NCBI GenBank assembly: GCA_963922205.1
Contig: CAWUHX010000263.1
Location: 186,001 to 250,000 of the forward strand
Origin: Romanomermis culicivorax
Taxonomy: Eukaryota > Nematoda > Enoplea > Mermithida > Mermithidae
Length of the DNA stretch: 64,000 nt
Reading direction: 5' to 3'
Shown: positions 1,076-36,634 of the stretch, piece by piece
How the letters are laid out: each line of letters starts with the position of its first letter
Position numbering within the stretch: position 1 is the stretch's first letter
Notes under the pieces: model-generated
What the model was told of the DNA's origin: nothing
The model's database searches: none
The model's input: the letters and a program-made list of their open reading frames with translations, nothing else
Made by a program: the position numbers and the translations under genes

Positions 1076-2191
1076 ATGAAGTCAGAAGCTGATCTCCCTT
1101 CACAGATCGAGAACAAGGTCCAGGCAGCATTTGAGAATGCTCTTGTATCCCTCAACCAAAAGGTAGAGGCCATGAATGGTCGGAGGCACCCTCCTGTGTC
1201 CAGCTTTATGGCCCCTCCCACCTTTTCCGGTGCTTTTGGTGAGTCTATCACCTATTTTATGTCGCATCTTACTCGTTTCTTTACACTCCAGGGTGTAAGC
1301 GAAACGGATCATGCGTATAAAATCGCCTTTCTGGAGTCATGCCTCACGGGTCCTGCTCTTGCCTCCTATCGGGACTTCAGTAGCAGCACTCCAATACCTA
1401 CCCGCTACGAAGAGTTTACGGCTTTTCTACGGAGAGATTTTCCGGTAGGGCGCGACTCTGATCTGCATCAGCAGCTGATCCAAGATCGACTGCAGAAGCC
1501 GACAGAGTCCGCGATAGTCTACCTTGAGCACCTCAAGAGACTATCCAGGGTAGCGTATCCAGATCTCGCGACGGATGTCCGAGATTCTATCATCAAACCT
1601 ATCTTTCTGCGAGGATTGAAGCCGGTCCTCCGAGATAGTATCAAGTTTAGGGAGTTTACGACTCTTGAAGAGACACTCAAGGCAGCCTGTTACGCAGAAT
1701 CCCAAATCTTTCAGGACAAGATCCGGTACACTGCTCCTTCTAACGCCGTTTTCTCTTCAGAACCTAAACACGCCGGATATAATCCCAATATGCCTAACAG
1801 AAGCGCAAACAGTCGTCAGAGCAATGCTCCAACGTCGTCATCCTCCGCCGATGAGGTTCGCCGCTTGAAACAGGAAATGGCCAGGCTCACGGCCCACGTA
1901 GCGAAGCTCACGGCCCAGCAACATGCACCAGCGCCAATCCAACAGACGCCGCCTCCACAGCCGTCGACACCAAATCAGTCTGCCAGGCGACGCTCGTCGG
2001 GAGCACACCTTCAAACGTGCTCCTTCCACGGACTGTGTACACATAGCGACGCCGACTGCCGGGCCCAGAGTCCCACCGGTGCCGCTCCCGGTAACAACGC
2101 CGCTGACGGTGGTCGCTGTTATTTTTGCCGTACACGTGCCCACCCCACGGACCGATGTGATAGGCCATGCCCTCATTGTCATCAAGTGTGA
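1076..2191 (+). CDS. gag: Gag polyprotein (capsid and zinc-knuckle nucleocapsid) of a Ty3/Gypsy-type retroelement
   Basis: The 371-codon product would form the particle that packages the element RNA. Residues about 40-225 have the spacing and composition of a Retrotrans_gag capsid domain (YFMSHLTRFF, AYKIAFLESCLTGPA, FLRGLKPVLRD). A Pro/Gln/Ser-rich linker with a short heptad-like segment (EVRRLKQEMARLTAHVAKL) follows. The C-terminus is Cys/His-rich, with one clear CX2CX4HX4C knuckle (CYFCRTRAHPTDRC) and a partial CPHC motif at the end. The start is the ATG at 1076, the first in this open frame. The 3' end overlaps the next ORF by 25 bases in a -1 frame, which suggests ribosomal frameshifting for downstream products, but I see no classic slippery heptamer. 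Family assignment is firm; the frameshift is inferred. Confidence 0.85.
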   Translation: MKSEADLPSQIENKVQAAFENALVSLNQKVEAMNGRRHPPVSSFMAPPTFSGAFGESITYFMSHLTRFFTLQGVSETDHAYKIAFLESCLTGPALASYRDFSSSTPIPTRYEEFTAFLRRDFPVGRDSDLHQQLIQDRLQKPTESAIVYLEHLKRLSRVAYPDLATDVRDSIIKPIFLRGLKPVLRDSIKFREFTTLEETLKAACYAESQIFQDKIRYTAPSNAVFSSEPKHAGYNPNMPNRSANSRQSNAPTSSSSADEVRRLKQEMARLTAHVAKLTAQQHAPAPIQQTPPPQPSTPNQSARRRSSGAHLQTCSFHGLCTHSDADCRAQSPTGAAPGNNAADGGRCYFCRTRAHPTDRCDRPCPHCHQV

Positions 2192-5100
2192 GTGCAACGA
2201 TCAACTGCTGTCCACAGCGCAATCCGGCAAACACGGGTGAGAATGTCTACCAAGATACTGGTTATTCTTCCCAGGGGACAAATGTGTATCACCAGAGAAA
2301 TGGTTATCACCCTCCTAACGGGATGGGAAACCAATATCGGCAGCCCATACATCGCAACAATGCCGTTGGGGCTACCGATGGCCCTCCTCATCCAGATCCT
2401 CTTGACCTGGATGATGAGGCACTCGCTGAACACCTGACAGATTCTTCACAACAGTGTTATCCTGTCTGCGTAATCAGTATTGGATTTTCAGCGGTCCAAG
2501 CAGCCCAGGTACCCGTACCGATAAATGTATCGGACATACCGCTGCCACCACCACCACCAAAGTATGCGATGCCGGTCACTCTGGACCCCTCGACGACACC
2601 GCAGTTTGTTGGCCATGCTAACATCCTCGCATCGTATCGCATCCCCAAGATTAAGACTGCCGAGCCAGCTCCAGCCGCAAATACAACGTCTTCGGCGCCA
2701 CCGGCCCGCATCGTCCCTCCAGGACCACCGCCTTTGATCCCCACCGATTCGGCTACGGAAGTCCTCGACCAGGTCGAGCCCATGAATTTGTCAGGTATAC
2801 TACCTTCTTCTTCAGGTGATCCTAGAGTAGGAACCAGAAATCTATCTCAGTCCACGACTCTATCAATTTCTTGTTCACAGCGCCATCGCACCTCCAAGAC
2901 GCGATGTTGGCCATCTGGTCAGTTGACCTGGCCAAGAAATACCCGCATTTGCCATGGACCCTGCTCAACGAGCCATCGCATGTGGAAGCGCTCATGGCTG
3001 CTGACGTGGTGCTTGCGGCACCTGTTTCAATGCGACTCTTACGACCCCACGTCGCCTGACGGGCACTCGAGTTCATTGCCAATGGGACTATCACAATCTC
3101 GCCCGTCGAGAAGTTTTTATTGGACGGGGAGCCATCCTCGCCTTCGGTCGATGCCGTCCGCCGAGCAGTCAAACAGGCCAGTCGGATCCTCCTGCCTGCT
3201 GTCGCCGCTACATCACCGACAGCAGCGCCCCCTGTTGCCGCGACATCGCCAACAAAAATGGACATTACTGCTTCCTCGCCCCCGGCCAAGGAACCCGCGA
3301 ATGATCCTACACCGCCCGCAACAGCCCAAAATACATCGTCGGCAACAGCCCAAGCCAAATCGCCGGCGCCAGCCCAAGAGACATCTCCGACCGCTGCGAC
3401 CAAGTCGCCCGTCGTCGAACACATGGCCGTCGACGAGACCTTACGTCCGGTTAACGAAGATGTCAGCATCGTTGAGGAATCTCCGTTCCCAACGGCAGTC
3501 GCCCCACGGTCGCCAAAAATCGGTATCCTCCGGGAAATCCACCCGTGTGGTGGATTGGTCCTCGATTTCCCCGGCCAGGAACCCATCTCGTCCGACAGCG
3601 ACGAAGAAGAAATCTGACACTGCCCCTCAGGCCAGATTTGTGGAAATGAGTGAACACTTACAAATTACGTTTGTACAGTTGTTTTTGATAATAAAATTGA
3701 CCTTGGTAGCATCACTGTTTCTAGGGGTGAGTTTGTCAGCACCGGCGGCTCAGTATCAATTTTGCAGTCTCTCAAGAAGCGGACATCCACTTGAGTTACC
3801 CCAGCGTGTAGAGTGTAAACCACCGCAATCTTCATGGAGCCCGCGGCGCATGAATGTTACGGTGTATGTCCCTAGCTCAGACCCGATTACAACCACAGCG
3901 TGGAAATGCACATTGCGCTCCCGCAAAGTCTGCACCAACACTGGCTTCTTCGGCTCTAGGGGCATCACTGCAGACGTCATTACCACTCAGCACATAGCGC
4001 CTGCGGCATGCACGCTAGCACATCGCACTAAGATGTTTGGTTCACAAAAACTTGTCGGCATTCGCCCTGGCTTTTATAGCACAAACCAAACATTGGAAGT
4101 GATGTACGAATGGTGCTGCAGCGACGTCTGCAAGACAGTGACTAACCTCTTCATCGAGGAGGGACAAGTCGCTTCGTGGGACGGCACTACGGCCCTAAGC
4201 ACCTTAGGCGATGTAGGTGGATGCAGTCCCACTGCAGGCCAGTGCACTACTCCAGACGGGGTCATTGTCTGGCCTGCACAAAACTTCACGGCGCGGTGTC
4301 ATTATCACCCCAAGGGAAATTTCACTGCGTCCATGTCAGGGAACCACGTCATCATCGATGATCTACAGGTTGCCCTCAAGATCCCGGGAAACTCCCGTGT
4401 CTTCCAACTGTGCCCAGAACTACGTTCCACCACAGTCCGGACGGATCAGGGTCTTCTCCTTCGCATCCACGGGAGATACAATTTGACCCAAAACTTGTTC
4501 AGAATGGCAAAGGACACCCGTCCCGATCCTGTCAATGCCAAACTGAACTATCTGGCTCAGCAGATCAAGGAGTTGGAAATTAACGGTTTCCGGTTCACGT
4601 GGCTTGAGCTCTGCTCTCACGCTCAACGCTATCTTGATCTGACTTGGCAGTTGCTTCGCTTCGACCCTACCTTGGGTGCCCGGGCATTCCTCCAGAGGAA
4701 TGACCTGACGGCGGAATTCACAGGCGACGCACTGACAATATGGCCGTGTCAGAAGGTCAACGCCACCTACGTTTACCACTCGTACCGGGTGGGAAACGTT
4801 TGCTACAAGTACTTACCTGTACAGGTCGGCGGCACCATCTACTTCGCCACCCCCGGTGGTCCGGATCTCATTAAATCTAGCCCAGTTGTGCCGTGTCATC
4901 ACCACTTTACAGGGATTTTCCGAAATGGCTCGGGCTGGTTTACTGAGTCTGGCGCAGTCCATGTGAGCCACATCCCACTGGAACTCTTCTGGAAGCATCG
5001 TTTCAACATCACTCACGTCGAGGCACCGGCGCTCTTCCATGACCAGTTGGCGATGACCCCTTCAAACTTTGCCTTCTTTAAACAGTATGTTTATAAGACT

Positions 5101-8100
5101 GAGCAAATTGAAGCGGTACTCAACCGGCTGGTAAACTTTACCACTGGTCTGTCCCTGCAACCAGACGCCATTTACCAGGCCTTTGCAGGGGTAGGAACCG
5201 ACATCAAGGCCTCTCTGGAAGGTGTCCGTTTGGCAGCAAACCATGTTATTACGGGTCAACAACAGACCCTCGCCCAGGGCTTGCATGCTGTCCTGAGCGG
5301 GCCGGTCCAATTGATCCTTAACATCCTAATTACCCTGACAGTGCTGATCGGTGTCGGATACCTTGCCTATCTCGGTGTATCTTATTATCTCAGCTATCGT
5401 CTGCGGAGCAAACAGGTCAGGTTTGTTAGCCGTTTCTCCCCGTTGGGTCTTTACCGCAAAGTCCAACGCTGGATCGGTTTTCACTATGTGCAAAACGATG
5501 TGCCCTCCCAGCTTGACCGAATCACACCGTGTTTCGTCGTGCTGTTGGATACCAAGGAAACTCCTGCTTTCCTTGACACGGGTTGCTCCCGCACTATCAT
5601 TAGCCAACGCCTTCATAAGGCCTTGGCTAAAGAAAGTCCGAAGGCGGTCATGGCGTTCCAGCAACATCACGACTTTAACCCATTGATGAGCATCAATGGT
5701 AAAGCCGTTCATACCATCCTTTCGGGACCATATGAAATCATGTTGCCCGGAAACCGCCAGCCGAACACACGGATCGATATACATCTCCATGTGTGCAAGA
5801 CTACGTCTCCCTTCTGGGCACCTGTTGACCTCATACTCGGACTGGACTTCTTAGAACAGTTCAAGAACATTATGTTTGACTACCAATGTAATGTTTGTCG
5901 GCTGGACGCGGTAGAATTACCCCTCCTGCTGACCACGCCGGAGATTGACCAGATCGACCCCTGGTGGGAGAACACCCGTGCTCTCTCACGAAGCTCACAC
6001 AGGTCGGGATCACGATCGCGGTCCAGGGCTTCGTCCATCTCTCAGCCACACTCACGGGCCTCCTCAATTGCCTCATCACGTGGGTCAACTAGGGGATCCA
6101 GGGCCTCTTCTAGACGGGCAAGTCGTCATTTGTCAACCTTGCACGGGTCAGGTTGCCCTCGACCTCCGCCTGGAAACTCTCCAGTCACGCTAGAGAAAGG
6201 CCGATACCGTGAGCCAAGTGATTCAGATGCTCCGGCATCACCCGTGCCAAACGCGCCACCGCTATCGGACACCGAGATTGAATCACTAGGAGCTACTCAG
6301 AGCCCAAGGGACCACTCAGACCACGTGCTTACGGTACAGGATGAGTCCACCCTTCTCAATGACCCAGAACCCTCCATCGGATACGCTCTAGTAGGTCTAC
6401 TACGTCGTATGGGACTGCCGATTCCAAAGCGGTCCAGTAAGACCAAACACACTAGTGGTGCCACCACACCTGATTCCGGTCATGTGGTCTCTGCTTTTTA
6501 CCCAAATGATATTCGGACTACCCATATCAAAGTTCTCCTCAACAATTGGGTAGAAGCAAAGGCACTGGTCGACACAGGAGCTGTTTTCTCACTCCTGGAC
6601 CACAAGTTAGCGGCCCAGCTGCCCAACTTGACACTTTTACCAACCAGGGCTCGTCCTATCACAGCCAACGGGTCCCCGATCCCACTGCTAGGAGCAGCCT
6701 ACATCACGGTTACAATGGCTGATGTCTCTGAACGGATTCAGGTCCAAATACAGGAGAACTGTTCAGCTGAACTGGTCCTTGGAACAAACTTCCTCGGCCG
6801 GTTCAATTGTGTCAGCTTGAACTGGGAGAAGTCCTTCCTCCAGTTCAAAGAAAGTAGAATCCCCTGTGACGGTCTCATCCACAGCCCACCTTCTGCCCGC
6901 GGCGCCTTGCCCCTGAAGGACTTGGTAATTCTGGAGCCTTGCTCCCTGACAGGATTCACTGTACCTGTTCCACCAATCTATACGAACGTACCTGAGGTGG
7001 CCTTCTTTCCGAAGCACCTCACCGGGTCTCAGAGACACGTATATTTCGCTGGAAGCGTGAGTAGCGTGACCAACGGTCACATACCACTTCAAGTAGTTAA
7101 CCCGAATACGCATTCCGTGGTTCTCTACCCACACATGACCATCGGTCATGTGCAAATGCATAGTGAGCCCTCACGGGAATCACCGGTCGACTCAGACACC
7201 GTCCTCGATCATCGGTGGGTCGAGGCCAATGCTGTAATCTCACCGGACATCTCCCCTCGGGACCGGGCAGCCTTACTCGACCTGCTGGTTGCATACACCG
7301 ACCTTTATGCTATTGATGAAAAGGACACAGGTTCCACTGATCTCGTCCAGCACGAAATCAGCACGGGCGATGCCCGCCCAGTCCCCCGTTTCCCTTACCT
7401 GTCCTCACCTAAGGAGAAGGATCTCATCATGCAGGAGGTCAAGGCGCTCCAGGAGAAAGGTATTATTCGGCCGAGCACGTCTCCGTGGGCTACTAATACT
7501 GTCCTGGTGCATAAGAAAAACGGTTCTCACCGTATGTGTGTTGACTTTCGTGGTCTTAACGAGGTCACGAAAAAGGATGTCTACCCTCTCCCATGGATAG
7601 ATGACATTCTCGACACACTCAAGGGTATGAAGTACTTCACTACCCTTGACCAGGCTAACGCTTATTGGTCAATCCCGATTGCCGAGGCGGATAAAGAAAA
7701 GACTGCATTTAATACACCTATTGGACTTTACGAATTCAATTATTTGCCGTTCGGTTTATGCAACGCGCCAGGGACATTTCAATGCCTTATGGACCTCCTC
7801 CTTACTGGAATCCAATGGCGCACGGTTCTGACCTATCTCGACGACATTTTGGTGTTCGGGAACTCTCACACCCAAATGCTTGAGCACCTGGCAGATGTGT
7901 TCGCCCGTCTTCGCCGGGGTGGAATGAAGCTCAGACTGAGCAAGTGCAAATTCTCGCACTCAGAGGTAGAATACCTAGGCTATCGCATCTCACAGAGCGG
8001 CCTAGAACCTGACCAAGCCAAGCTGGCCGCCGTCCAAAACCTACCCATTCCACAAAACGCCAAAGACATCAAGTCCTTCCTAGGCCTCGTGTCTTACTAC

Positions 8101-8898
8101 AGGCGTTTCATCCCTGGTTGTGCCCGGCTCAGCGAGCCCCTCACCAAGCTCTTACGGAAGGAAACTACTTTCCAGTGGTCAAAACCTCAGCAGGAGGCGT
8201 TCGATGAACTCCGCCGCCTGCTGACCAACCCTCCTATCCTGCGCCATCCGGACTTTTCGAAATCCTTCATCCTTCAAACTGATGCGAGTATTTCGGGGAT
8301 AGGAGCGGTTCTTAGCCAGTTAGACGAAAATGGATACGACCATCCTGTCGCGTACGCCAGCCGAGGGTTAACAGCGGCCGAGAAAAACTACTCCATTACA
8401 GAACTGGAAACTCTCGCTGTTGTCCATTTCGTCAAGCACTTTCGACCATACCTCTTCCAGCACGAGGTGGTCATTCAGACTGACCATACCGCGGTCAAAG
8501 CAGTGTTGGAGAAGCCTAACCCCTCTGCTCGGATCGCTCGGTGGGGACTCGCGCTCGCCGAATTCAAACTGACAATTCGGCTGCGAAATGGTCAGTCTAA
8601 TGGTAATGCTGACGCATTATCATGCCTGCCGGATCCTAACTCCCTCACCGGTCAGAGTATTGATGATACTCCCCTCTACAGACCTGAGGGGCATGTTATG
8701 ATGATCACCGATGGTGCGCAGCACCTGGCGAGATCAAGGCCCTTGACCGATGGTGTGCAGCACCTGGCGCGTTCAAGTAATTCAGCACCGATCACTGTTG
8801 TGCAGAGGGCCCGGTACCATCAGAGTCCTATGCCGAGATATCCGTTGGTGCGCAGCACCCCGACCTTTTCGCTGCTCAGCTGGAGGATCCAGAGTTAG
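2167..8898 (+). CDS. pol: Giant ORF2: linker, envelope-like glycoprotein, two retropepsin motifs, reverse transcriptase and RNase H
   Basis: A single 2243-codon frame. Residues 1-220 are Pro-rich. About 221-490 is Arg/Pro/Ser-rich and may be an off-frame reading. Residues 494-1085 are an envelope-like ectodomain with a signal peptide and a C-terminal membrane helix. A first retropepsin motif, FLDTGCS, has its Asp at 1137. An RS-rich stretch follows (about 1275-1330), then a second motif, LVDTGAV, with Asp at 1469. Reverse transcriptase starts near 1726 and has catalytic YLDD (Tyr at 1890). RNase H has QTDAS (Asp at 2039), the ELET motif and a terminal NADALS motif. The RT block is plainly Ty3/Gypsy. 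The final ~25-50 codons drift out of frame with integrase, which continues in the -1 frame. This is far longer than ordinary Gypsy pol ORFs because of the envelope insertion. Whether one polyprotein is made, or the envelope comes from a spliced mRNA, cannot be read from DNA. Confidence 0.85.
2826..3617 (+). pseudogene. Overlapping +3-frame reading inside ORF2, protein-like but with one stop
   Basis: In this frame the translation has ordinary protein character, for example [21 protein letters not shown] and [19 protein letters not shown]. It continues into an Ala/Pro/Thr-rich stretch and an acidic end (SSDSDEEEI). The frame used by ORF2 over the same bases is an Arg/Pro/Ser-rich string typical of reading GC-rich codons out of frame. 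One TGA at 3058-3060 interrupts the protein-like frame. The ancestral Gag-proximal coding frame may therefore run here, with frameshifts on both sides having let ORF2 stay open by chance. Overprinting of two real proteins is the alternative. Codon-position statistics on related copies would decide. Confidence 0.4.
3618..3631 (+). promoter_or_regulatory. Possible 3' splice site just upstream of the envelope ATG
   Basis: A short pyrimidine tract ending in ctcag (tgcccctcag, AG at 3629-3630) sits 16 bases before the envelope ATG at 3646. A second candidate, ttcttcttcag, ends at about 2815. Either could pair with the strong donor in the LTR to make a subgenomic envelope mRNA. This is sequence-based inference only. 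Confidence 0.3.
3646..5490 (+). CDS. Envelope-like membrane glycoprotein segment inside ORF2
   Basis: From an in-frame ATG at 3646 the reading has a hydrophobic signal-like segment ([17 protein letters not shown]), then about 530 residues rich in Cys pairs. At least eight N-glycosylation sequons are visible (NVT, NQT, NFT, NLT, NAT, NGS, NIT). Near the end is a helical segment with Gln/Leu heptads, then a strongly hydrophobic helix at about 5311-5385 ([20 protein letters not shown]) and a basic tail. This is the layout of a type I membrane fusion glycoprotein. The spacing around [10 protein letters not shown] and the following PC motif reminds me of chuvirus-type (Jingchuvirales) glycoproteins captured by LTR elements. 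That is recollection only and needs a profile search. The retropepsin DTG follows the tail within about 60 codons and no stop separates them. The membrane glycoprotein call is fairly secure; its viral family is not. Confidence 0.65.
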
Positions 8899-8942
8899 CC
8901 GACATCATTCGCTCTCTTAAGCCTCTGGGCAACCTGAATGAT

Positions 8943-10214
8943 GTGCGAGGCTACCATCTGTTGGATAACGTTCTTCAGAAATGGACAGGCGAGTCCAATA
9001 AGATTGTCATACCCAAATCCATGGTTACTACCATTATCCGGGCTCATGATGATGACATCTTAGCTGGACACTTTGGTGCTAAACGTACTGCGCGGCTCAT
9101 TGCTCGCAGATACCACTGGCCTTCCCTCAGTCGGGATGTCAAGTCCTTCTGTCAGCGGTGTGATCTTTGCCAACGGAATAAGCCCGCTCGACAGAAAACC
9201 ACTGCGACCCTGAAACCTATCACCATCACGGGACCGTTTCATCGGGTAGGTGTCGACTGTATGGGACCAATGACCACTAGTGAAGCTGGCAACCGTTTCA
9301 TCGTAGTCTTCATCGACTACTTTACAAAATGGGTCGAGGCTTTTGCTACTCCAGACATCACTGTGCACACCATAGCCCGGCTGTTTGTAACGCAAATTGT
9401 CTGCCGGCACAGGGCACCGCAGATTCTTCAGTCAGATCGTGGCACTGATTTCACATCAAAACTGATGACTGAGATCACTGCGATCTGCGCAACGAAGAAG
9501 ATCCACTCTACCGCCTATCATCCGATGACCAACGGCGAGGTGGAAAGAGCTAATCAGACGCTAGCCACACGGCTACGTATGTATGTTCATCAAGGACATA
9601 CCGATTGGGATGAACACCTACCATACGCTGTGTTTGCCGTCAATATCAGCATGAATGAGTTAACAGGGTACTCGCCCTTTGAACTCATGTACGGTCGCAC
9701 ACCCATGCTCCCTGTTGATGCCCCGCTCTCATTCAACCCTCCGGCCCATATCATTAATGTTTCCTCATATGATATGGAGGTCAAACGTCATTTCACGAAT
9801 GCGTTAACCTTAATCCAGAGTCGGATTGAGAAAGCACAGGAGACCTATGCACGGTCGTACGACCGGAAGGCACATGATGTCTCGTACAAAGTAGGGGATC
9901 AGGTGTTCAAACTGCGCACCTCCAGCAAACGTGGACTCACTCCTAAATTGCTGCCCATCTACGATGGGCCCTACCTGGTAACAAGTGTGGCATACCCCAA
10001 TGTCACACTTCGTCTCGAGACGGATCAGGAAGACACTGTACATGTCAACCAGCTTCGACTTTACGTGTCCCCTGAACAACTGAGTGAAGCAGAGGATACA
10101 CCTCCCACTTCACAGGCAACAGATTCGGCACCCTTATTGTATCCTTCAATAAGCCGGGACTTTACACCGAATTTGATTGACCCACATCTTGATGCAGAGG
10201 TCCCCGACCCTTAA
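8943..10214 (+). CDS. int: Integrase of the Gypsy-type element
   Basis: The 423-codon frame carries an HHCC zinc-binding domain (HX~H in AHDDDILAGHFG, then CQRCDLC), the catalytic core and a C-terminal GPY/F module (YDGPYLVTS). Core residues are Asp in VGVDCMG, Asp in QSDRGTDF and Glu in NGEVERANQ. It inserts the cDNA into the host genome. The frame is open well upstream of the first ATG, to about 8790, and reads plausible RNase H-integrase linker there ([16 protein letters not shown]). Integrase is therefore the continuation of pol after a -1 shift, not an independent gene. Either a single-base indel between about 8700 and 8820 has broken pol, or the shift is programmed. The shift falls in or next to three near-repeats of a GAQH/GVQH-coding segment, where slippage would be easy. 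Confidence 0.85.
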   Translation: MRGYHLLDNVLQKWTGESNKIVIPKSMVTTIIRAHDDDILAGHFGAKRTARLIARRYHWPSLSRDVKSFCQRCDLCQRNKPARQKTTATLKPITITGPFHRVGVDCMGPMTTSEAGNRFIVVFIDYFTKWVEAFATPDITVHTIARLFVTQIVCRHRAPQILQSDRGTDFTSKLMTEITAICATKKIHSTAYHPMTNGEVERANQTLATRLRMYVHQGHTDWDEHLPYAVFAVNISMNELTGYSPFELMYGRTPMLPVDAPLSFNPPAHIINVSSYDMEVKRHFTNALTLIQSRIEKAQETYARSYDRKAHDVSYKVGDQVFKLRTSSKRGLTPKLLPIYDGPYLVTSVAYPNVTLRLETDQEDTVHVNQLRLYVSPEQLSEAEDTPPTSQATDSAPLLYPSISRDFTPNLIDPHLDAEVPDP

Positions 10215-10248
10215 TTCAAGATGCATTCTCTTCATTGTCCCCGCTTAC

Positions 10249-10813
10249 GGACGAGGACGTCCTTTTTCGAAGGACCGCCGTGCCCCTCACGAAGTATCCA
10301 CTCTTGTCCATGCTGGATCTTAGTGGATAGAAGAGAACGTTCAGCAACCAAAGCATCACGCCTTAGGCGCATCCTCACGCGATAGCCTACACTTCACTGG
10401 GTGCATCCTCTGCGATAACCCGACAATCTACACTTCACTGGGTGCATCCTCTGCGATAACCCGACAATCTGTACCTCACTGGGTGCATCCTCTGCGATAA
10501 CCCAAAAATCTGTACCTCGCTGGGCGCATCCTCTGCGATAGCCTACATCCTGCCCTGAAAATTTTTCTTTTCTGTGTTCTAGACTGTCGCACAGGATATT
10601 CAATGTCTGCAACTTCATGCATCAACAACCTCCGGTTACCATACCGCCGAACGAATTACGACCAAAGAAGGTTCCATCCGTCAACAACCCAACGGACCTA
10701 TTCGACCACCCGCCGTCGCACCTTGGAACGACCCACGACCACGGACACGCCGCACAAACCTCACTACTAACCACTGCAAGGACGAGGACGCCCTTTTTCG
10801 AAGGACCGCCGTG
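10249..10813 (+). repeat. Duplicated 34-bp segment flanking the 3' untranslated region
   Basis: A 34-bp string beginning ggacgaggacg and containing cctttttcgaagg occurs at 10249-10282 and again at 10780-10813 with one difference. The second copy directly abuts the LTR start at 10812, where the polypurine primer should lie. The first copy is 35 bases after the integrase stop. It may be a duplicated plus-strand priming region, but the purine run is short. Confidence 0.6.
10389..10552 (+). repeat. 41-bp tandem repeat, four units, between integrase and the 3' LTR
   Basis: Four units start at 10389, 10430, 10471 and 10512. Each contains ctgggtgcatcctctgcgat or a close variant; a partial unit precedes them at about 10362-10388. 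The first two are nearly identical and the last is most diverged. Function is unknown. Confidence 0.85.
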
Positions 10814-11042
10814 TCACGTGCCGCTCAATTCTCCAACGTCACGTGATTCCGATCATGCCGACATTTTGTTATTTGTTTCATGTTTCGTTTATTACTCGAT
10901 CATGCTTTTGTTTAGTTCATTTTTACACATGCATTTTACCCTCGTTTTTATATTTTTCATGCATTTCTATGTTTCGTTTTGTTGTATTTTATTACAAACG
11001 CGGGCTACAGTAGGCCCTTTAGCTAAAAAACTTCCGCCAGTC

Positions 11043-11337
11043 GTGCTCCACGAGCACATGGCTATTTTTGGTGCGCTCCATGCACCTCTTATCATCAAAA
11101 TTAGCGTCGTTTTTGTTACGCAAAAACGACTAGCTAAGAAGTTTTAGCTAAAGACGTTCATATGCTTAGCATAGGCCCTGCAGTCGGCCTCAGTGCTAAA
11201 CGCATGTGAACGAAAAAATGTCTATGTGCTCATAGGCATCTTCTGCATCGCGTCTAGCTGCAGAAGTTAGCTTGAGCGCCGGGAAACTCCGCCCAAGCTG
11301 CAGCTGTAGCCAAACATGTCCTTAAAAGGACATGTTT
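11043..11337 (+). other. Hairpin cluster in the LTR
   Basis: Visible perfect stems include GTGCTC/GAGCAC (11043-11057), GTCGTTTTTG/CAAAAACGAC (11106-11130) and a 12-bp stem AAACATGTCCTT/AAGGACATGTTT (11312-11337). All recur in the second LTR at about 35036-35330. Where the copies differ, one stem is equal or better paired in the second copy (GGTGCA/TGCACC there). It may be a structured 5' RNA leader element. Confidence 0.55.
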
Positions 11338-11728
11338 CTTTAGTTTTTCGCTCATTCTTGGGTTCACCAAGCTTTCGTCCGGTTGTAACTCCGCGTCCGC
11401 CGCCCTTCGTCAAATTTGCATAATTTATTATACACCTGTGCGTCCGCCGCCTTATTACCAATAAATTTGCATAAATTTACCAGTGTTCACTGCGTCCGCG
11501 GCTTACCGTCTACAGTACCCGCTGCCCATCAGTGCCAGGTGTCCGATCGCCCCCCGGTTCGTGGATTAAACGTTGGAGTACCGCCTCCCGCTCGCCTCCC
11601 GCTCGCCGCCGCTCGCCGCCGCTCGCCGCTAGGACGTTTGTGGATCGCATCCCCGCCCCAGTGCCAGAAGACCGAAAGCATCCAGGGACTTGCCGCCCGT
11701 TGCGTCGCATCGCTTGAGAAACAGGACT

Positions 11729-11736
11729 AGGTGAGT
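11729..11736 (+). promoter_or_regulatory. Conserved 5' splice site in the LTR
   Basis: CTAG|GTGAGT matches the metazoan donor consensus and is unchanged at 35751-35760 in the solo LTR. Position after the poly(A) signal suggests it lies in R/U5, so any transcript begun in the 5' LTR would carry it. It could serve envelope mRNA production. Confidence 0.5.
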
Positions 11737-12300
11737 CTTCTCAGGGGATTATTGTTATTTGTGGGGTATTTGTTGGGGAATCCTTCCTAAGTCGGTTTCC
11801 CCACGGTTGTCCACAGATAAGTAGGGCCTCAACCTCTCAGGTTCGGGCTAAAAGGGGCTGTCTGGTTCATAATCGGGTCCCACCAACTAGGTCATTTTAC
11901 GGGTGACCCTGTCCCCGCTCTCACTGAGTAGGACTCGGGGATTGTCGCACCTAGCCTGGCAGCGTTGTCCATTACCCTACAGCAAGACCCCAAGGACAAC
12001 ACAAGAGAACCAACTATAGACCTCTCTATAGCCACCATTTGCCAGGTTAGGCCCCAACGCCATTTAGGGAAGCCTGGGGAAAATGCCAGTATCCATCAGG
12101 AGTCACAGCCTATTACTCACTGTAATAGGATCAATCTGATATGGTTCACCATCAATGTGACGTCTAAAACACGGTATTACCTGATGAGATACCCAGACCT
12201 CCCCAGCTCTCCCAAATCCACATGTCATACACGTGACATGGATGGCGCAACATGTGACACGTTTTATAGAAAGAAGTAACTAAAAATGCTAAAAAATAAA

Positions 12301-12590
12301 ACTCATTTTTGAGTGAGGTATTCGAAAAGAAAAGTTTCAGAGCACCAAACTGATTTTTGAGTGAGGTATTCGAAAAAAACAGTTTCAGAGCACCAAACTG
12401 GTTTTTGAGTGAGGTATTCAAAAAAATAGTTCCACAGCACGAAAGTGATTTTTGAGTGAGGTGTTCAAAAAAAAATAGTTCCACAGCATGAAAGTGATTT
12501 TTGAGTGGGGTATTCGAAAAAAATTGTTTCAGAGCACCAAACCGATTTTCGAGTGAGGTATTCGAAAAAAATGTTTCAGAGCCCCAAACT
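12301..12590 (+). repeat. ~47-bp tandem array, about six units
   Basis: Units read roughly tttttgagtgaggtattcg, an A-run, then a gtttcagagcaccaaact or gttccacagcacgaaag ending. A few more unit fragments lie at 12839-12890, so a MITE has split the array. Copy 2 of the block (26337-26672) has one more unit. Confidence 0.8.
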
Positions 12591-12591
12591 A

Positions 12592-12836
12592 TAGTCTGTT
12601 TTTCTTGAAATGCTTCTAAATAATGAAAGTGGAAAGTAAGTAGTATTTCAGATTTTTACGATTTCCTGATTAATGATATATGGTATAGGACTGAAAATTT
12701 GTGAGCATACTGACCTAACCTTCAACAATTTTTCGAGTGAAAAATTTTAGAGTAAGAGCTGTATGTAAACAATTTTGACGACGATACTGATTTGTGTCAC
12801 TTTTCTATATGGAAGCTTTTTTTAAAAAACAGACTA
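12592..12836. mobile_element. TA-flanked MITE (TAGTCTGTTTTTC family), copy 1
   Basis: The 245-bp element has inverted ends TAGTCTGTTTTTC and its complement ...AACAGACTA, with TA on both sides. No coding capacity is seen. TA target and ends suit mobilisation by a Tc1/mariner transposase. Related copies lie at 13874-14100 (inverted), 18545-18792 (diverged), 24936-25185, 26675-26919, 28070-28296 and 31984-32161 (truncated). Confidence 0.8.
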
Positions 12837-13257
12837 TAATTTTTGAGGGAGGTATTTGAAAAAAATAGTTCCGCAAAAAAATAGTTACACATCAAGAATG
12901 CATGGATTAAAAACAAGGGAATGCTTAGCTGCTCATTTCGACAAATTTTCATTTCGTCAAAATTATAACGATAATAATGATTGGATTTGGAAATTTTTTG
13001 TGAACTCATCAACAGACTTATGATTTTATGTGCACTAAAATGTTTGTTTTACATTGCACCTGAATTTTTTTTATTTTTCCTAAATTTTTTATGAATTGTT
13101 TTATTTTTTCTTTGTCCTCGAAAAAACTATTTGATTCGATTCCTGTGTAGATTATTGGAATCGAGTAATTATGCACTATATGATTCTAAGCTTATTATTC
13201 TTTACTTTCTATTGGCGGCCTTTCCTATTGGCAATATTAATGATTCAGCCTACTTTA

Positions 13258-13672
13258 GCGCATTAGCCACATTAGCCCATGCGCCAGACCCATTATTTAT
13301 AACACACTGCATTAGCCACACTAGCCCATTGGCCACATTAGCCCATTGGACACATTGGCCCATGGGGGGCATTAGATCATGGACCACATTAGGGGTTGGC
13401 CAGATTAGCCCAATGGCCACATTAGCCCATTGGCCACATTAGCCCATTAGCCACATTAGGCCATTGGCCACATTAGCCCATTGGCCACATAAGCCCATTG
13501 GCCACATTGGCCCATTGGCCACATTAGCCCATTAGCCACATCAGCCCATTGGCCACATTAGCCCATTAGCCACATTAGCCCATTGGCCACATTACCCCCT
13601 TGGCCACATTAGCTCACTCAGCCACTCAGCCACATTGGCCTAATTCATAAGCACATTTAGCCTATTAGCCAA
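13258..13672 (+). repeat. 17-bp satellite, copy 1
   Basis: Tandem cattggccacattagcc-type units run for about 415 bp. Each unit is itself two similar half-units (cattggcca / cattagcc), so the array is self-similar at two scales. There are no unique spacers. The first and last units are the most degenerate. Confidence 0.85.
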
Positions 13673-13873
13673 GCTAATATTTTTGAATCTGTATACAAAA
13701 CACAGGAGTAGGCTATTCAGGTTAGGCCGAAGTATCTGTGAAGTAATGATATTTGGGGAAGGCTGTCATGTGACACACGATGGAAGATTGAAAACACCAT
13801 GTCTTGGTGTGCATATGTATTCTGAGGTATCACAATCCAGAGAATTTGTAACACTGTAGCTGAATGTTATATC

Positions 13874-14100
13874 TATAGTCATGCTTTTAAAGTGAAAATT
13901 GACAAAAAATAGCACTGTCGATAAAATTGTTTACACAATTTTTGACTATAAAATTCTTTAATCAAAAAATAGTTAAAGGTTAGTTGAGTATGCTCACAGA
14001 TTTTCAGTCCTGTGTAACGCACAGTTTAGCTGAAAATCTAAAAAATCTGAAATACTACTTGCTTTCCACTTAGGAAGCATTCCAAGAAAAACAGACTATA
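13874..14100. mobile_element. MITE of the TAGTCTG family, inverted orientation
   Basis: It starts TATAGTCATGC and ends AAAAACAGACTATA. The body is the reverse complement of the 12592 element with substitutions and small indels. It lies 12 bases left of the Tc1-like transposon. Confidence 0.65.
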
Positions 14101-14112
14101 GAAAGCTCTATA

Positions 14113-16215
14113 GGCCTGTCCCCGGTACAGCAAGACTCAAAACAGCGATTCTCGTTACAGCGAAGTTTCAAAACAGCGGATCTCAATACAGCGAATGATA
14201 AAAAGTTACGTCAAAGTAAACGCACACATCATGTTTCTAATAAATATGTAGTCACGTGCAAAATTATAGCCCCCCTCCTGATATTTTCGAAAACCATAAA
14301 TTTATTCAACAAAAACGATCCAAATAACTTTTAAATGCATGCAACAATAAATACTAATAATTAATAGGTCCTCCTTTTGCATTCACAACCATAGACATCC
14401 GTTTTGGCACGGAAGCAATCAATTTTTTACAATATTCAACACTGATACTTTTCCAAACATTCAACAGTTTTACATGTAATTCATCATCACTTGGCGCATG
14501 AAAACTAATTTTTTGCAACTCTATCTTCATCACATGCCACAAATTCTCAATAGGATTGAGGTCGGGAGATTGTTGCAGCCATTCTAGCACAACAATCTTT
14601 TTATTGCCGAAAAATTTGGTCATTATTTTGGCCTTATGTTTAGGGTCATTGTCCTGTTGAAAAATCCAACCGGTTGTAGACGATAAAGGTAGAGCAGAAT
14701 CCAACGAGTCTGTCAAATTTTCTTCTAATAGCGAAATGTAAGATGCAGCAGTGAATTTAGGATCTGTTGGTTTGTTGGGAATGAATACCAAAGAGCCGAC
14801 ACTGCACAAACGGAATGCACCCCACACTAAAACGCCTTTACCGCCACCATGTTTGACACTACTGACCATGCACTTCATAGCATATCTTTCACCAAGTCGA
14901 TGACATACAAGCACCCTATTTTTCTGAGTAAACCGCTCAAACTTCAATTCGTCGGAAAACAACACTTTGCTCCAATCGGACACTGTCCAGTTGAGATGAT
15001 CGATCGCAAACTGTAGTCTCTTCTTTCGGTTGACTTCTGATATGAAGGGTTTTTTGGATGCAACCCAAGTGGTAAAGCCTAAAAGAAATAAAAAAATAAA
15101 AATATCTTCAACTAGTGTATTTTTTGCATGAAAATGTACCTAGTTTGTTTAGCCGACAGCTGATTGTTGATCGGTGAACAATAGTGCCTCCACCACTGGC
15201 AAGATCTTCCGTCAATTCCGGGATAGATTTTCGGCGGTTCTGTTCCACTAAACGTCAGAGTCTTCTATCGTCCCTTTCACCAAGTTTCGATTGTCTACCA
15301 GCATGCTTATCATCGCAAAAAGAGCCTGTTCTGATGAATTTAGCGATAGTTCTTCTGATAATGCGCCGATCGATATTCAGTCGCCGAAAAATTTCGTGTT
15401 TCGATAGTTTAGCAACGTTATATAATGCGTAAATTGACGCCCGTTTTGTTGGTGAAATACTACGTCCACGACCCATTATTGAATCCAGGAGAACAAAACA
15501 CACACCAACGAAGAAGAACACACTTTACACTAACTCATTTTTTGCTCAAAGTCCATTTTCTTATTTTATTTTATTCAAATTCAAAATATACTGATTTCTT
15601 GGGGGGGGGCTATAATTTTGCACGTGACTAGGTATCTTGAAACCGTTCTTGCTAGTTGAGTATATTTTTAGTTGCATTTGGCCGTCTAAGTTTCACACGC
15701 TTTAGTGCTGCAGTTGCGAACACATTTTTGCAAAACCTTTGAAAAAACAAAAACAAAAAATTACCACAAGGATTCCCGATTAAAATTGTTTCGTATGGAG
15801 CTTAATTGCAAAGAAAATTAAATTAATGAAATAAATAAAACAAAATGAAGTAAGCAAATAAAATGAAATAAGCACATAAAATTAAATGAATAAAATAATT
15901 TAGTGGTAAAGGCAAAACAAAAAACAAATAATGAAGAAATGAAAAGTAGGATAATCTGATAAAAAGTATGTAAAAAATTGAACAAAAGTACGTAACCTCA
16001 AAAAATTAAACAAAAAAAACAAAAAGTGGCTCAAAATAAAAAGAATATAAAAGGGAAAAGTCACTTTTTGAGAATCTGTTCCGAGACTTCACTGTTTTGG
16101 GAATCGCTGTATTGAGACTTTGCTTTATTGAGAATCGCTGTTTTGAGACATCGCTCTATTGAGTCTCGTTGTTTTGAGTTTTGCTGTTGTGTCTTTCACT
16201 GAATAGGGGTGAAAC
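14113..16215 (-). mobile_element. Tc1-like (DD34E) transposon, block copy 1
   Basis: About 2.1 kb. Both ends carry long inverted repeats built of degenerate ~17-18-bp iterons of the form cagcga-NN-ctcaaaa: 14130-14200 on the left and the complement at 16071-16195 on the right. Outer tips are GGCCTGTCCCCGG and the complement of ATAGGGGTGAAACC. TA precedes the left tip. The transposase is on the minus strand; about 0.6 kb of A-rich DNA fills 15640-16060. Confidence 0.75.
14354..15476 (-). pseudogene. Tc1-like transposase with intron, nonsense-mutated copy
   Basis: Exon 1 is 15476-15140 and exon 2 is 15078-14354. A 61-bp intron with GT...TTTTAG ends separates them. Exon 1 encodes a paired-like helix-turn-helix (GRGRSISPTKRASIYALYN). 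Exon 2 has the DDE core: Asp in FSDEL, Asp in FQQDNDPKH and Glu in LNPIENLW, with 34 residues between the last two. A TGA at 15257-15255, where copy 2 has CGA, truncates exon 1 after GERDDRRL. This copy is therefore inactive although its catalytic half is open. Confidence 0.8.
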
Positions 16216-17742
16216 CGGATGCGGCCATTTTTGAAAAAACAGTAAACAGATTTTTTTCCCGACTTCCCCTAAAGTTGTGGGCAACTGAGGATTCCAAACA
16301 CGAAAAATTTGTTTTCTCACATCTCAGTGTTCTGTTACATATATGTTGGTTGACTTGGTGATTCAGGACATCCATTTTGTTATCAAGGCTGCTTCTGTTG
16401 TAGTGCGAAATCTGATATACTCGTGTCAGTTTTGAGATAGGCCCACAAGTACAAAGAGTCCTACTACGCTGCACCTCAATCAGGACAGAACTTGCCATGG
16501 AACAAGCTTTTGATAAATTAGGCATTTAATTTTTATTATTATTCTCGTTCATCTTTCCCATGTTTGTTATTATTAATAATTGTCTTCTTGAAAAATGTTG
16601 AAACTTGTAGAATGGCGATTTAAGGGTAAGTTCTGCAAATAAATATTTAGTTAAAAAATCGTTTTATTCTTGTTTTAAAGTGTGTTGCTCAGTCTGGCTA
16701 ATTTTAGTCAGGTGTATCTGGCGTAAGTAAGATTTCTGATCTTGACTACTAGCCCTTGAGTGAGGAGTCAGTCCGATTTTTGAGGCAGGTGCTGAAAAGC
16801 ACTAATGGTAAGGCCGACCTCTGGTTAATCATCAATTTTGACTAATTCTTCTGATCATGAATCAAACAGTCAAAAAATGGTTTGGACCCAGTTATTTTTA
16901 GCAGATGTAACACTCCTTGATTAGAAACATTTGTAATTGTAGATGATTGGATTAAGTTCATGACATTAGAAGTTTTTGAATCTCAATTTTTGTTTCGGTT
17001 ATATTCGGTTATATAGCTCTATAAATGTGAAACAAAGATCAAAGCAGGTCGCGTTATTAGTAATCCAGAAGCAGTATTCAGATTTCATAGTTTCAGATTA
17101 ATCTACTCTCAAGCCGTAGCCTTAATATTGTAATTAATTAAAAGTGCAAAAATTTTCATACAGAAACGCATACCATTTGATGTAGACAGTCGAGGTAACG
17201 GGATTGTAATAAAAAGGAGTTCTTGAAATAAAAATACGAATTTAAAGCACTAGTCGAGAGAACGATATGGTCGAAATAAAGGGATGGTCGAGGTAAAGGG
17301 ATGTTCGAGGTAAAGGAACGGTCGAGGTATGGGGACACAACGCTTTCTTGATGGCTCGCCTGATTTTTATATTAGAAAAACATGTTTTCATCTCGAAATT
17401 GAAAGAATATTTGTAGTGTTTCTCAGTTATCAAAAATGGTAGATTTAGTTTTCATGGTTCCCTTTCTATTTTTCTCTAGAAATTTGAATTTTCGTATGAA
17501 AAAAACAGTAGTCTCACAAAGAAAAAAGACAAAATTAATGACAGTCTTGATAAAACTATCCGTGTTGGATTTTTACCCTCTAAAAAGATATCAAATGAAA
17601 CGCAAAAATTTATTCTATTGGGCCAAAAAATATTTCTGAGCAGCCAATTGAAGAGTGATTTTCAAGAAAGAAAAAAGTATACCATGTTCTGAAGTGACGA
17701 AAATATGGGTCACTGCGAATCAGCTCGCAAGTGGGGATTGAA
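16216..17742. other. Right part of block copy 1, no gene recognised
   Basis: AT-rich DNA with short direct repeats of a ggtcgaggtaaaggga type at about 17275-17330. Open frames such as 16196-16525 are equally preserved in copy 2 simply because the DNA is. They show no domain or splice signals. Confidence 0.5.
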
Positions 17743-23202: not shown

Positions 23203-23600
23203 TCAAGGCTTTCGAGGTTGAGGAGGGGTGGGGGTAGATTCGCTAGCTGCTTTCCGAGGGTAGAAAGGGGTTGTCTCGTTTACATGCACCGTAAATGTAA
23301 TATTCTTATGGGGGTGTTTGAGTGTAACGTTGGGGTACATGAAATTTGTGACTGTATAGGGTCCGTTTTGGCGAGGGAGGAATTTGGGAGTCAGCCCTTG
23401 TTTACACGAATGATTTTTATAAAGAATAAGATCACCTGCCTTGTAATGTATGTTCTGAGCATGCTTGTTATACTGACGGGTATAGTGGGCTTGGGCTTTT
23501 TGCAAACTTTTCTGCACGGTTGAGAGTGCTTCTGTGAAATGCGATTTTACACGAAGGGCGTAATCGTCTAAGTCAACCATGTAGGACGTGGGGAAAAAAA
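23203..23600 (-). pseudogene. Integrase C-terminal fragment of the second Gypsy-type element
   Basis: About 130 codons read like the end of the integrase at 8943-10214 without being close to it: YKAGDLILY, GLTPKFLPRQNGPYTVT, YPNVTL and VHVNETTPFY. This is the GPY/F module. Homology stops near 23590 at an A/T-rich junction, so most of the element is missing. The stop is 16-18 bases from the polypurine tract, as expected at a pol 3' end. Confidence 0.75.
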
Positions 23601-26336: not shown

Positions 26337-26672
26337 ACTCATTTTTGAGTGAGGTATTCGAAAAGAAAAGTTTCAGAGCACCAAACTGATTTTTGAGTGA
26401 GGTATTCGAAAAAAACAGTTTCAGAGCACCAAACTGGTTTTTGAGTGAGGTATTCAAAAAAATAGTTCCACAGCACGAAAGTGATTTTTGAGTGGGGTAT
26501 TCGAAAAAATTGTTTCAGAGCACCAAACTAATTTTTGAGGGAGGTATTTGAAAAAAAACAGTTCCAGAGCATGAAAGTGATTTTTGAGTGGGGTATTCGA
26601 AAAAAATTGTTTCAGAGCACCAAACCGATTTTCGAGTGAGGTATTCGAAAAAATTGTTTCAGAGCACCAAAC
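26337..26672 (+). repeat. ~47-bp tandem array, about seven units (copy 2)
   Basis: Same array as at 12301. A unit at about 26524 reads caaactaatttttgag, which equals the pre-insertion site of the adjacent MITE. The array resumes after the MITE at 26921-27055. Confidence 0.8.
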
Positions 26673-34241: not shown

Positions 34242-36634
34242 TGACGCCCTTTCTTAATGTTCTCAGAAACCCTGTTGCACCTACTGTGAAATTATGATAT
34301 CACCAAACAAAGGCTTGGGTTTTTGGTATTTATTATTAAATTACTCACAAATGTAAATAGATAAGGCAATAAACGGAACGGTGCGCGGGCTCGAAGGTGC
34401 AAAGGTTGGCACAAATAGGAGAGGTTAAAACTCTGCAGTTTGTTGTAGGGAAGGCAAATTCCAACAAGGGATTTGGCTATTCCGATATTCCGTAAATGAA
34501 TGGCAACGAGGGATTCGGCTGTTCGGAAATCCTGTAGATGAAGGGCAACTCGTTTGCCTCTAGCCAGCAATCGTAAGGCGAGCGATCAGCTATCACATAA
34601 GTCCAAAGAGGAGCGATTAAACTATCACATAATTCGACGACTCCAAAACTCCAACGGCTGCAACAATTGCAACGACTAAAGAAGACTGACTCTTCTCCTT
34701 TTTCTCAGTCACACATCAACTTCCTTGGGGCGTGGTCAGCCCTGCTTGAGTTGTAATCCTGGCACATAGTTCCACTAAGTGGAAGTGCCTATAAAGTACT
34801 TGTCACGTGCCGCTCAATTCCCCAACGTCACGTGATTCCGATCATGCTGACATTTTGTTATTTTTTCATGTTTCGTTTATTACTTATTCATGCTTTTGTT
34901 TATTTCATTTTTACACATGCATTTTGTGTTCGTTTTTATATTTTTCATGCATTTCTATGTTTCGTTTTGTTGTATTTTTATTTCTTTATGAACGCGGGCT
35001 ACAGTAGGCCTTTTAGCTAAAAACTTCCGCCAGTCGTGCTCCATGAGCACATGGCTATTTTTGGTGCATTCATGCACCTCTTATCATCAAAAATTAGTGT
35101 CGTTTTTGTTACGCAAAAACGACTAGCTAAGAAGTTTAGCTAAAGACGTTCATATGCTTAGCATAGGCACTGCAGTCGGCCTCAGTGCTAAACGCATGTG
35201 AACGAAAAATGTCTATGTGCTCATAGGCATCTTCTGCATCACGTCTAGCTGCAGAAGTTAGCTTGAGCGCCGAGAAACTCGGCCCAAGCTGCAGCTGTAG
35301 CCAAACATGTCCTTAAAAGGACATGTTTCTTTAGTTTTTCGCTCATTCTTGGGTTCACCAAGCTTTCGTCCGGTTGTAACTCTGCGTCCGCCGCCTTCGT
35401 TTAAATTTGCATATTTTATTATACACCTGTGCGTCCGCCGCCTTTTATCTTCAATAAATTTGCATACACTTGCATCTCTTACTGTGTCCGCCGCCTTATA
35501 GCAAGTTAATTTGCATAAATTTATACCCGGTTACCGCGTCCGCCGCTTACCGCCTACAGTACCCGCTGCCCATCAGTGCCAGGTGTCCGACCGCCCCGGT
35601 TCGCGAAGAAAATGTTGGAGACTCGCCTCCCGCTCGCCGCCGCTCGCTGCTAGGACTCTGTGTGGATCGCACCCCCCCGCTCCAGTGCCAGAAGACCGAA
35701 AGTATCCAGGGACTTGCCGCCCGTTTCGTCGAATCGCTTGAGAAACAGGACTAGGTGAGTCTTCTCAGGGGATTATTGTTATTTGTGGGGTATTTGTTGG
35801 GAAATCCTTCCTAAGTCGGTTTCCCAAGTTTTCCACAGATAAGTAGGGCCTCCACCTCTCAGGTTCGGGCTAAAAGGGGCTGCCTGGTTCATAATCGGGT
35901 CCCACAAATTAGGTCATTTTACGGGTGACCCTGTCCCCACTCTCACTGAGTAGGACTCGGGGATTGTCGCACCTAGCCTGGCAGCGTTGTCCATTACCCT
36001 ACAGCAAGACCCCAAGGACAACACCAGAGAACCGACTATAGACCTCTCTATAGCCACCATTCGCCAGGTTAGGCCCCAACGCCAACCAAGGAAAGCCTGG
36101 GGAAAATGCCAGTATCCATCAGGAGTCGCAGCCTATTACTCACTGTAATAGGATCAATCTGATATGGTTCACCATCAATGTGACGTCCAAAACACGGTAT
36201 TACCTGATGTGATACCCAAACCTCCCCAGCTCTCCCAAATCCACATGTCATACACGTGACATGGATGGCGCAATATGTGACATACTGTAGCAGTGTAGCA
36301 CCTGCTACTTCAACGGTTTTTGCCATAATTATTGGTGGGTTCGAAACATTGAACCCATTAGTGTATTTTTGAGTGAAAGTGGTTTTTTTGTTTTAAAGTG
36401 TGTCGACCCTTCGATTTCTTGCCTAGTACATACATAACAGTGCAAAAATGGTAAATAAAGTACTTGAGAAATAAGTCTGGTTTCCAACTCAGAACACAGA
36501 TTAACAAAAGCTTGGGAAACCACTAATTGGTTACATAATTGTACATGACGAGAAAAACATGTGGGACATGAGGGATAAATTAAATATATGAAAATTTGCA
36601 TAAAAATTATCCTAATTTTTACAACTCCTTGACA
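34242..36634 (+). mobile_element. Solo LTR of a third family, itself split by another solo LTR
   Basis: Begins TGTGACGCCC and ends CCTTGACA, flanked by GCAT at 34238-34241 and 36635-36638. Both flanks are MITE sequence that joins correctly when it is removed. It is about 907 bp without the nested LTR. It has a TATAAAG at about 34790 and AATAAA near 36452, in promoter-to-poly(A) order. It is GC-richer than its surroundings in the left part. Confidence 0.6.
34801..36282 (+). mobile_element. Solo LTR of the first retroelement's family, 4-bp target duplication
   Basis: Collinear with the LTR at 10812-12259 from TGTCACGTG to TATGTGACA. Flanked by TACT at 34797-34800 and 36283-36286. It has one more gcgtccgccgcc/aatttgcat unit (about 35390-35550) than the other LTR. 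The hairpins, the poly(A) signal near 35454 and the splice donor at 35755 are kept. No internal sequence remains, so it arose by LTR-LTR recombination. Confidence 0.85.

What the first reader, a model, noticed from the sequence alone, without database searches (positions are those of the whole stretch)
3646..5490. Envelope-like glycoprotein placed between gag and pol, in frame with pol
Seen: a signal-like segment, many N-glycosylation sequons, Cys pairs and a membrane helix, followed without a stop by retropepsin, RT and RNase H. Known: in retroviruses and errantiviruses env follows pol and uses a spliced mRNA. Here the order is gag, env, protease, RT, RNase H, integrase. An active element would need a signal peptide inside a polyprotein, or a spliced message giving an Env-Pol fusion. 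This arrangement may be undescribed. It is the best candidate for a novel system in the window.
Basis: partly seen in the sequence, partly recalled or inferred. Interest (0 to 1): 0.88.

Follow-up and report, generated by a model that had tools for sequence, protein, structure and literature searches.

The report
Retroelement with envelope before pol
A Ty3-type retroelement carries a virus-like membrane-fusion glycoprotein between its capsid gene and its enzymes instead of after them; unnamed relatives share this order, which has already been reported in giant planarian elements, so it is an unusual but not unknown design.

Summary
Window 3646-5490 encodes a fusion glycoprotein of the Monjiviricetes (mononega-/chuvirus) type, probably class III, in frame with protease, RT and RNase H of a Ty3/Gypsy-type LTR element whose 3' LTR ends at 12259. 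Five unnamed database polyproteins carry this envelope before the protease (5 of 5); in the four that reach further upstream, gag-like sequence comes first (in P0007 by eye only). All 16 envelope cysteines are shared by 7 of 7 sequences. Envelope and pol trees share their best-supported split, so the two seem to have travelled together.

The novelty claim fails in part: PMC6431247 (2019) reported in-frame env between gag and pol, with mononegavirus-like matches, in giant planarian Burro elements. Different here: a compact element in which that cargo was not found, the same order in diverged relatives, and a second retropepsin next to the membrane anchor. In this copy gag, part of the linker and integrase lie in other frames than env-pol, so it is probably decayed. 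Most likely mode: one Gag-Env-Pol chain threaded twice through the membrane; a spliced message is the main rival. Other genomic copies and a structure could not be examined (tools unavailable).

The parts
1076..2191 (+). Gag: Ty3-type capsid (1244-1699) and one CX2CX4HX4C zinc knuckle (about 2117-2158)
   Evidence: PF19259 E 2.1e-8; similar to the N-terminal part of P0008, P0009 and P0010, not detected with P0007; knuckle read by eye from the sequence
2167..3645 (+). Gag-env linker; open in frame 1, but the coding signal moves to frame 3 between about 2790 and 3617, where stops occur
   Evidence: Frame tests, frame-3 reading; no Pfam match in frame 1 or in 3120-3617 of frame 3
3646..5490 (+). 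Envelope: Monjiviricetes-type fusion glycoprotein (probably class III), starting with its own ATG
   Evidence: PF24664 E 9e-14; 34-38% identity to six relatives, 16 of 16 Cys shared by 7 of 7 sequences (BLASTP)
3655..3747 (+). Hydrophobic signal-like segment (proposed first membrane pass)
   Evidence: Hydropathy
4531..4950 (+). Fusion-protein core matched by Pfam; overlaps the stretch that matches herpesvirus gB
   Evidence: PF24664 match, residues 296-435; gB profile matches
5287..5385 (+). Envelope membrane anchor (proposed second membrane pass)
   Evidence: Hydropathy
5518..5886 (+). PR1: extra retropepsin next to the membrane anchor, DTG motif
   Evidence: 34.4 bits with a profile of five relatives' proteases; best of 200 shuffles 2.7
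6514..6840 (+). PR2: retropepsin corresponding to the single one in relatives, DTG motif
   Evidence: 74.2 bits; 37.5% to P0006
7507..7989 (+). Reverse transcriptase, YLDD at 7834
   Evidence: PF00078 E 2.6e-35; motif
8176..8565 (+). RNase H
   Evidence: PF17919, PF17917
8943..10214 (+). Integrase, in another frame than RT; similarity to a relative starts at 8826
   Evidence: PF17921 E 5.5e-20, PF00665 E 3.9e-8; tblastn
10812..12259 (+). 3' LTR with TGTCA...TGACA ends; a 5' LTR would lie outside the window
   Evidence: Alignment to solo LTR; ends; homology of the flank to a second place in the window starts at 12260
34801..36282 (+). Solo LTR of the same family, TACT on both sides (4-bp target duplication)
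   Evidence: 88.7% identity over 1515 columns, 100 of them gaps; flanks

Best explanation
This is a partly decayed copy of a Ty3/Gypsy-type, retrovirus-like element from a diverged lineage that took up a mononega-/chuvirus-like fusion glycoprotein and keeps it between Gag and protease. Proposed working (inferred): the intact form makes one Gag-Env-Pol chain. Gag is made in the cytosol; the hydrophobic segment at the start of Env acts as an internal signal and sends the Env ectodomain into the ER; the anchor at its end returns the chain to the cytosol, so protease, RT and integrase stay on the Gag side. Signal peptidase would free Gag, and the element's retropepsin would cut Pol from the Env tail. 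Gag, Pol and Env could then meet in one budding particle without a spliced env message. Shown here: Env identity, order, common frame with PR-RT-RNase H, the same order in relatives, two hydrophobic flanks. Inferred: topology, cleavages, polyprotein expression, fusion activity.
For: Env family: PF24664 in the window and in 7 of 7 family members. PDB profile search with seven envelopes: 34 of 36 matches at E<=10 are herpesvirus gB (best E 0.0044), counting one labelled ORF8 that I recall to be a gB; the other 2 are NMDA receptors. Env before protease and RT in 5 of 5 database polyproteins and before integrase in the 4 that reach it; P0007 to P0010 are single chains of 2293-2847 residues. Gag-like N-termini: P0009 and P0010 by Pfam zinc knuckle and gag similarity, P0008 by gag similarity, P0007 by a knuckle seen by eye. 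Env and pol trees both join P0007-P0010 apart from window and P0006 (support 99 and 100). Hydrophobic regions flank Env: two and only two above threshold in the window ORF, P0008 and P0009.
Against: In this copy gag, linker, env-RT and integrase occupy three frames, so the window itself shows no single chain. The leading segment is weak in P0007 and P0010 (hydropathy 1.51 and 1.60 against 2.3-2.5 in the others; other regions of those two proteins score higher). Within P0007, P0008 and P0009 the pol and integrase trees join P0007 with P0008 (90 and 99) while the env tree joins P0008 with P0009 (61); P0010 as first branch has only 63 in the env tree. The window envelope alone found no gB in the PDB. 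No structure, RNA or protein data; hosts of the relatives unknown.
Confidence: 0.6

Rival explanations
1. Env (or Env-Pol) is made from a spliced message starting at the ATG at 3646; the shared frame with pol only serves an Env-Pol fusion or is incidental.
For: The envelope starts with its own Met and a signal-like segment at 3646. A pyrimidine-rich stretch ending in CAGG lies just upstream (3623-3631; the pattern occurs at 9 separate places, 14 overlapping matches, in 10.8 kb). A stop ends the frame-3 linker at 3617. Retroviruses make Env from a spliced mRNA (PMC10309623 passage); the same for errantiviruses is recalled.
Against: P0007 to P0010 run through gag-like part, env and pol as single chains, which needs no splicing; P0009 has no Met in the 33 or so residues shown before its signal segment. 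The splice-like match was looked for after the fact.
Confidence: 0.27
2. Several Ty3 lineages captured related envelopes independently at the same place.
For: LTR elements have captured envelopes from different viruses more than once (PMC7642597 and PMC5408684 passages). Env and pol trees disagree, weakly, inside P0007-P0009.
Against: Same position in 5 of 5 and the same best-supported split in env and pol trees.
Confidence: 0.08
3. The segment is a host gene fragment or a chimera limited to this copy.
For: The window holds only one copy of this coding region, and the genome could not be searched.
Against: Five diverged polyproteins have the same fusion; the frame is open across the env-PR border; viral family match.
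Confidence: 0.01
4. The envelope is a relic without function; the element moves only inside the cell.
For: This copy is probably decayed in the linker and between RNase H and integrase.
Against: All 16 cysteines are kept in 7 of 7 sequences that are only 28-42% identical, and the envelope frame is open here. That the relatives' envelopes are open says little, since they were found as predicted proteins.
Confidence: 0.1

Closest known systems
Burro giant Gypsy-like elements of planarians (PMC6431247, section 7 read)
   Same: Env in frame between gag and pol, matches mononegavirus fusion glycoproteins, Gypsy-like pol
   Different: Burro exceeds 30 kb with a 4873-residue ORF1, cargo domains (MATH, BIR, BCL2-like, ankyrin) and a dUTPase-like motif; here at most 12,259 bases of the element lie in the window, no such domain was found in the pieces scanned, and there are two retropepsins. 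Direct sequence comparison was not possible.
Anakin, BEL/Pao elements with a chuvirus glycoprotein in mosquitoes (PMC7642597, passages)
   Same: Envelope of chuvirus type captured by an LTR retroelement
   Different: Pol there is BEL/Pao; here the capsid matches Ty3_capsid. I did not verify where Env lies in Anakin.
Lokiretroviruses (PMC9040795, passages)
   Same: Env similar to mononegavirus fusion glycoproteins
   Different: Dual RNase H, in vertebrates; here one RNase H region was found.
Errantiviruses and other envelope-carrying gypsy elements of animals (PMC13172572, passages; Chary and Hayashi 2025 seen only in its reference list)
   Same: Gypsy elements with an envelope; passages say that some have type III fusion glycoproteins
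   Different: [quoted passage not shown] here Env precedes the protease.

Membership tests
Ty3/Gypsy (Metaviridae) LTR retrotransposons | Ty3-type capsid, then PR, RT, RNase H, integrase in this order | tested here: met
   Pfam; order by coordinates (integrase in another frame in this copy)
Ty3/Gypsy (Metaviridae) LTR retrotransposons | LTRs with TG...CA ends and 4-6 bp target duplication | tested here: met
   3' LTR 10812-12259; solo LTR with TACT on both sides
Ty3/Gypsy (Metaviridae) LTR retrotransposons | Two LTRs around this copy | not testable with these tools
   5' side lies outside the window; the genome search did not complete
Monjiviricetes-type fusion glycoprotein | Profile match above curated cut-off | tested here: met
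   PF24664 50.8 bits against 27; 7 of 7 family members match at E<=0.01
Monjiviricetes-type fusion glycoprotein | Class III fold | tested here: inconclusive
   Profile matches to gB are weak (best E 0.0044); the window envelope alone gave none; structure prediction switched off
Burro | Env in frame between gag and pol | tested here: inconclusive
   Env-pol is in frame and env follows gag, but gag is in another frame in this copy
Burro | Giant size and MATH/BIR/BCL2-like/ankyrin cargo | tested here: not met
   No such Pfam match in the seven pieces of 1076-11147 scanned or in 3120-3617 of frame 3; 10215-10616 and frame 3 before 3120 were not scanned; the 5' end is outside the window
Burro | Sequence relationship | not tested
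Retroviridae / lokiretroviruses | Dual RNase H | tested here: not met
   One RNase H region by Pfam at E<=1 in 7000-8898 and none in 8943-10214; a degenerate tether domain could escape Pfam
Errantiviruses | Env downstream of integrase | tested here: not met
   Env at 3646-5490, integrase at 8943-10214; no envelope match after integrase
Anakin (BEL/Pao) | BEL/Pao-type pol | tested here: inconclusive
   Ty3_capsid matches gag and no BEL/Pao model was listed for pol; no pol tree with references was made

The most novel reading that the evidence does not exclude
A deep lineage of Ty3-type retroviruses makes Gag, Env and Pol as one chain threaded twice through the membrane, in the manner of alphavirus or flavivirus structural polyproteins, with Burro as a giant branch; in the window's branch a second retropepsin sits at the cytosolic exit of the anchor and may be specialised for cutting Env from Pol.
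Probability: 0.4. Interest if true: 0.75.

Novelty: new variant of a known kind. Interest (0 to 1): 0.5.

Why it matters
Retroviruses place env last and make it from a spliced message. A lineage that keeps a fusion glycoprotein in the middle of its polyprotein would need another way to set the amounts of Gag, Env and Pol and to sort them across a membrane. The shared order in diverged relatives turns a remark on one element family in a review into a group that can be traced and tested.

Tried and rejected
Rejected: host gene fragment or copy-specific chimera. Rejected: a second copy of the coding region in the window; tblastn of five relatives at E<=1e-3 shows only this locus and a short integrase-end fragment at 23218-23592, minus strand. 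Rejected: PR1 as a recent tandem copy of PR2 (E 0.26 between them). No result: three envelope scans and one RT scan of viral contigs (69) and one scan of prokaryote genome contigs confirmed no relative. A PDB search with the window envelope alone gave two unrelated matches (E 0.44 and 1.1); gB appeared only with profiles (22 of 22 matches with four sequences, counting ORF8; 34 of 36 with seven). Protein searches scored only the 8000 candidates sharing most words, so relatives may be missing. The coding-frame log-odds come from a codon model trained on this element and are coarse; the printed header says 120-nt but the windows were 150 nt. P0005 (536 residues, lone envelope, no context) is in the envelope counts and was left out of the order counts. 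Chary and Hayashi 2025 (eLife 108449), the paper most likely to bear on this, is not held and may already cover it.
Full report
What is there. Up to 12259 the window appears to be the inner part and 3' end of an LTR retroelement. Gag is ORF 1076-2191 (Ty3_capsid, E 2.1e-8), then comes a linker, then from the ATG at 3646 an envelope, followed in the same open frame by aspartic protease, reverse transcriptase and RNase H to 8898, and integrase in another frame at 8943-10214. The 3' LTR was found through a solo LTR at 34801-36282, 88.7% identical over 1515 columns. It starts TGTCA and ends TGACA, and the solo copy has TACT on both sides. Its end at 12259 has a second support: the flank from 12260 on matches another stretch of the window from 26296 on, and the match starts at the first base after the LTR. 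A 5' LTR would lie outside the window; the leader 1-1075 has only one 25-base chance-level match after 10214 (E 0.17).

The envelope. Pfam gives PF24664 Monjiviricetes_fusion at E 9e-14 and, below its cut-off, Borna virus G. Of seven family members, 7 match PF24664, 4 BDV_G and 4 Glycoprotein_B at E up to 0.01. Against the PDB the window envelope alone gave two unrelated matches, E 0.44 and 1.1. A profile of four envelopes gave 22 matches at E up to 10, all gB or ORF8; a profile of seven gave 36, of which 34 are gB (one labelled ORF8, which I recall to be a gB; best E 0.0044) and 2 NMDA receptors. The aligned stretch lies in the second half of the ectodomain. All 16 cysteines of the window envelope are cysteines in 7 of 7 aligned sequences. 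It has 9 sequons against a mean of 3.28 in shuffles, 3 of 1000 reaching 9.

Is the order real and shared? Three protein searches (the first two scored only 8000 candidates each) gave six relatives. P0005 is a lone 536-residue envelope without context. The other five are polyproteins. Starts of the envelope, protease and RT matches are: P0006 272, 635, 968; P0007 917, 1335, 1664 (its protease match is below the Pfam cut-off); P0009 741, 1083, 1407; P0010 1119, 1534, 1882. P0008 has the envelope at 1103 and RT at 1854; its protease was not found by Pfam but shows a DTG motif at 1530 and lies in the protease profile, which was built with it. So the envelope precedes the protease in 5 of 5, and integrase comes last in the 4 that reach it. 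Gag similarity to the window was found for P0008, P0009 and P0010, not P0007; P0007 shows a zinc knuckle by eye; P0006 begins at the envelope. P0008 has a dUTPase and P0010 an RRM domain ahead of the envelope, so this spot seems to accept extra domains, as in Burro.

Did envelope and pol travel together? Among the six polyproteins envelope identities are 33-42% and pol identities 36-58%; P0005 is 28-35% to the others. Both trees join P0007-P0010 apart from window and P0006, with support 99 (env) and 100 (pol). Inside that group they differ: pol and integrase join P0007 with P0008 (90 and 99), the envelope joins P0008 with P0009 (61); P0010 is the first branch in the pol tree (99) and, weakly, in the env tree (63). 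This favours one old capture; six sequences are few.

State of this copy. The coding signal lies in frame 2 for gag, in frame 1 to about 2790, in frame 3 with stops to 3617, in frame 1 from env to RNase H, and in frame 3 for integrase; between 2190 and 2790 it is weak. P0007 to P0010 carry the corresponding parts in one frame. The simplest reading is decay of this copy in the linker and between RNase H and integrase; programmed frame changes are not excluded. The RT motif (YLDD at 7834) and integrase motifs are present.

Two proteases. A profile of the five relatives' proteases finds two domains between envelope and RT: PR1 at 5518-5886 with 34.4 bits and PR2 at 6514-6840 with 74.2 bits; the best of 200 shuffles scored 2.7. 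With a profile that includes both, each of the five relatives shows one. From its DTG to the start of the RT match PR2 is 312 residues away, the relatives' proteases 306-334 (from positions), and PR2 is 37.5% identical to that of P0006, so PR1 is the extra one. Whether other copies have it is unknown.

How it may work. Two hydrophobic regions flank the envelope; in the window ORF, P0008 and P0009 they are the only two above threshold, while the first is weaker in P0007 and P0010 and falls below it. A chain that starts in the cytosol, enters the ER at the first and returns at the second would keep Gag and Pol on the same side. That is inference. The rival is a spliced message with a junction near 3631; the window has a fitting ATG and a splice-like CAGG just upstream, found after the fact.

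Known or new. What differs is the compact element without the Burro cargo in the pieces scanned, the same order in diverged relatives, and PR1. PMC13172572 (passages and a reference-list entry) cites a 2025 paper on envelope-carrying retrotransposons across animals that I could not read; it may include this group.

Noticed in passing
window 12260-17742 and 26296-31983: A segment of about 5.5 kb is present twice (92-97% identical in three pieces), holding a DDE_3 transposase fragment (14354-14983 by Pfam; its twin 28550-29179; minus strand; Tc1-like is my recollection). The element's 3' LTR ends exactly where the first copy begins.
   Followed up: partly
window 5518-5886 and 6514-6840: Two unlike retropepsins in one polyprotein; each of five relatives shows one.
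   Followed up: partly
window 23218-23592, minus strand: Short fragment similar to the C-terminal end of the relatives' integrase.
   Followed up: no
window 10387-10540: Tandem repeat of a 41-bp unit, 3.8 copies, between integrase and 3' LTR.
   Followed up: no
window 42909-43373: ORF that looks like the end of a non-LTR retrotransposon reverse transcriptase (recalled resemblance; no Pfam match).
   Followed up: no
P0008 residues 622-742; P0010 residues 419-475: dUTPase and RRM domains ahead of the envelope in relatives.
   Followed up: no
P0007 residues 902-905: RFRR, a furin-like site (by eye), ahead of the conserved envelope core; I saw none at that place in the window envelope.
   Followed up: no
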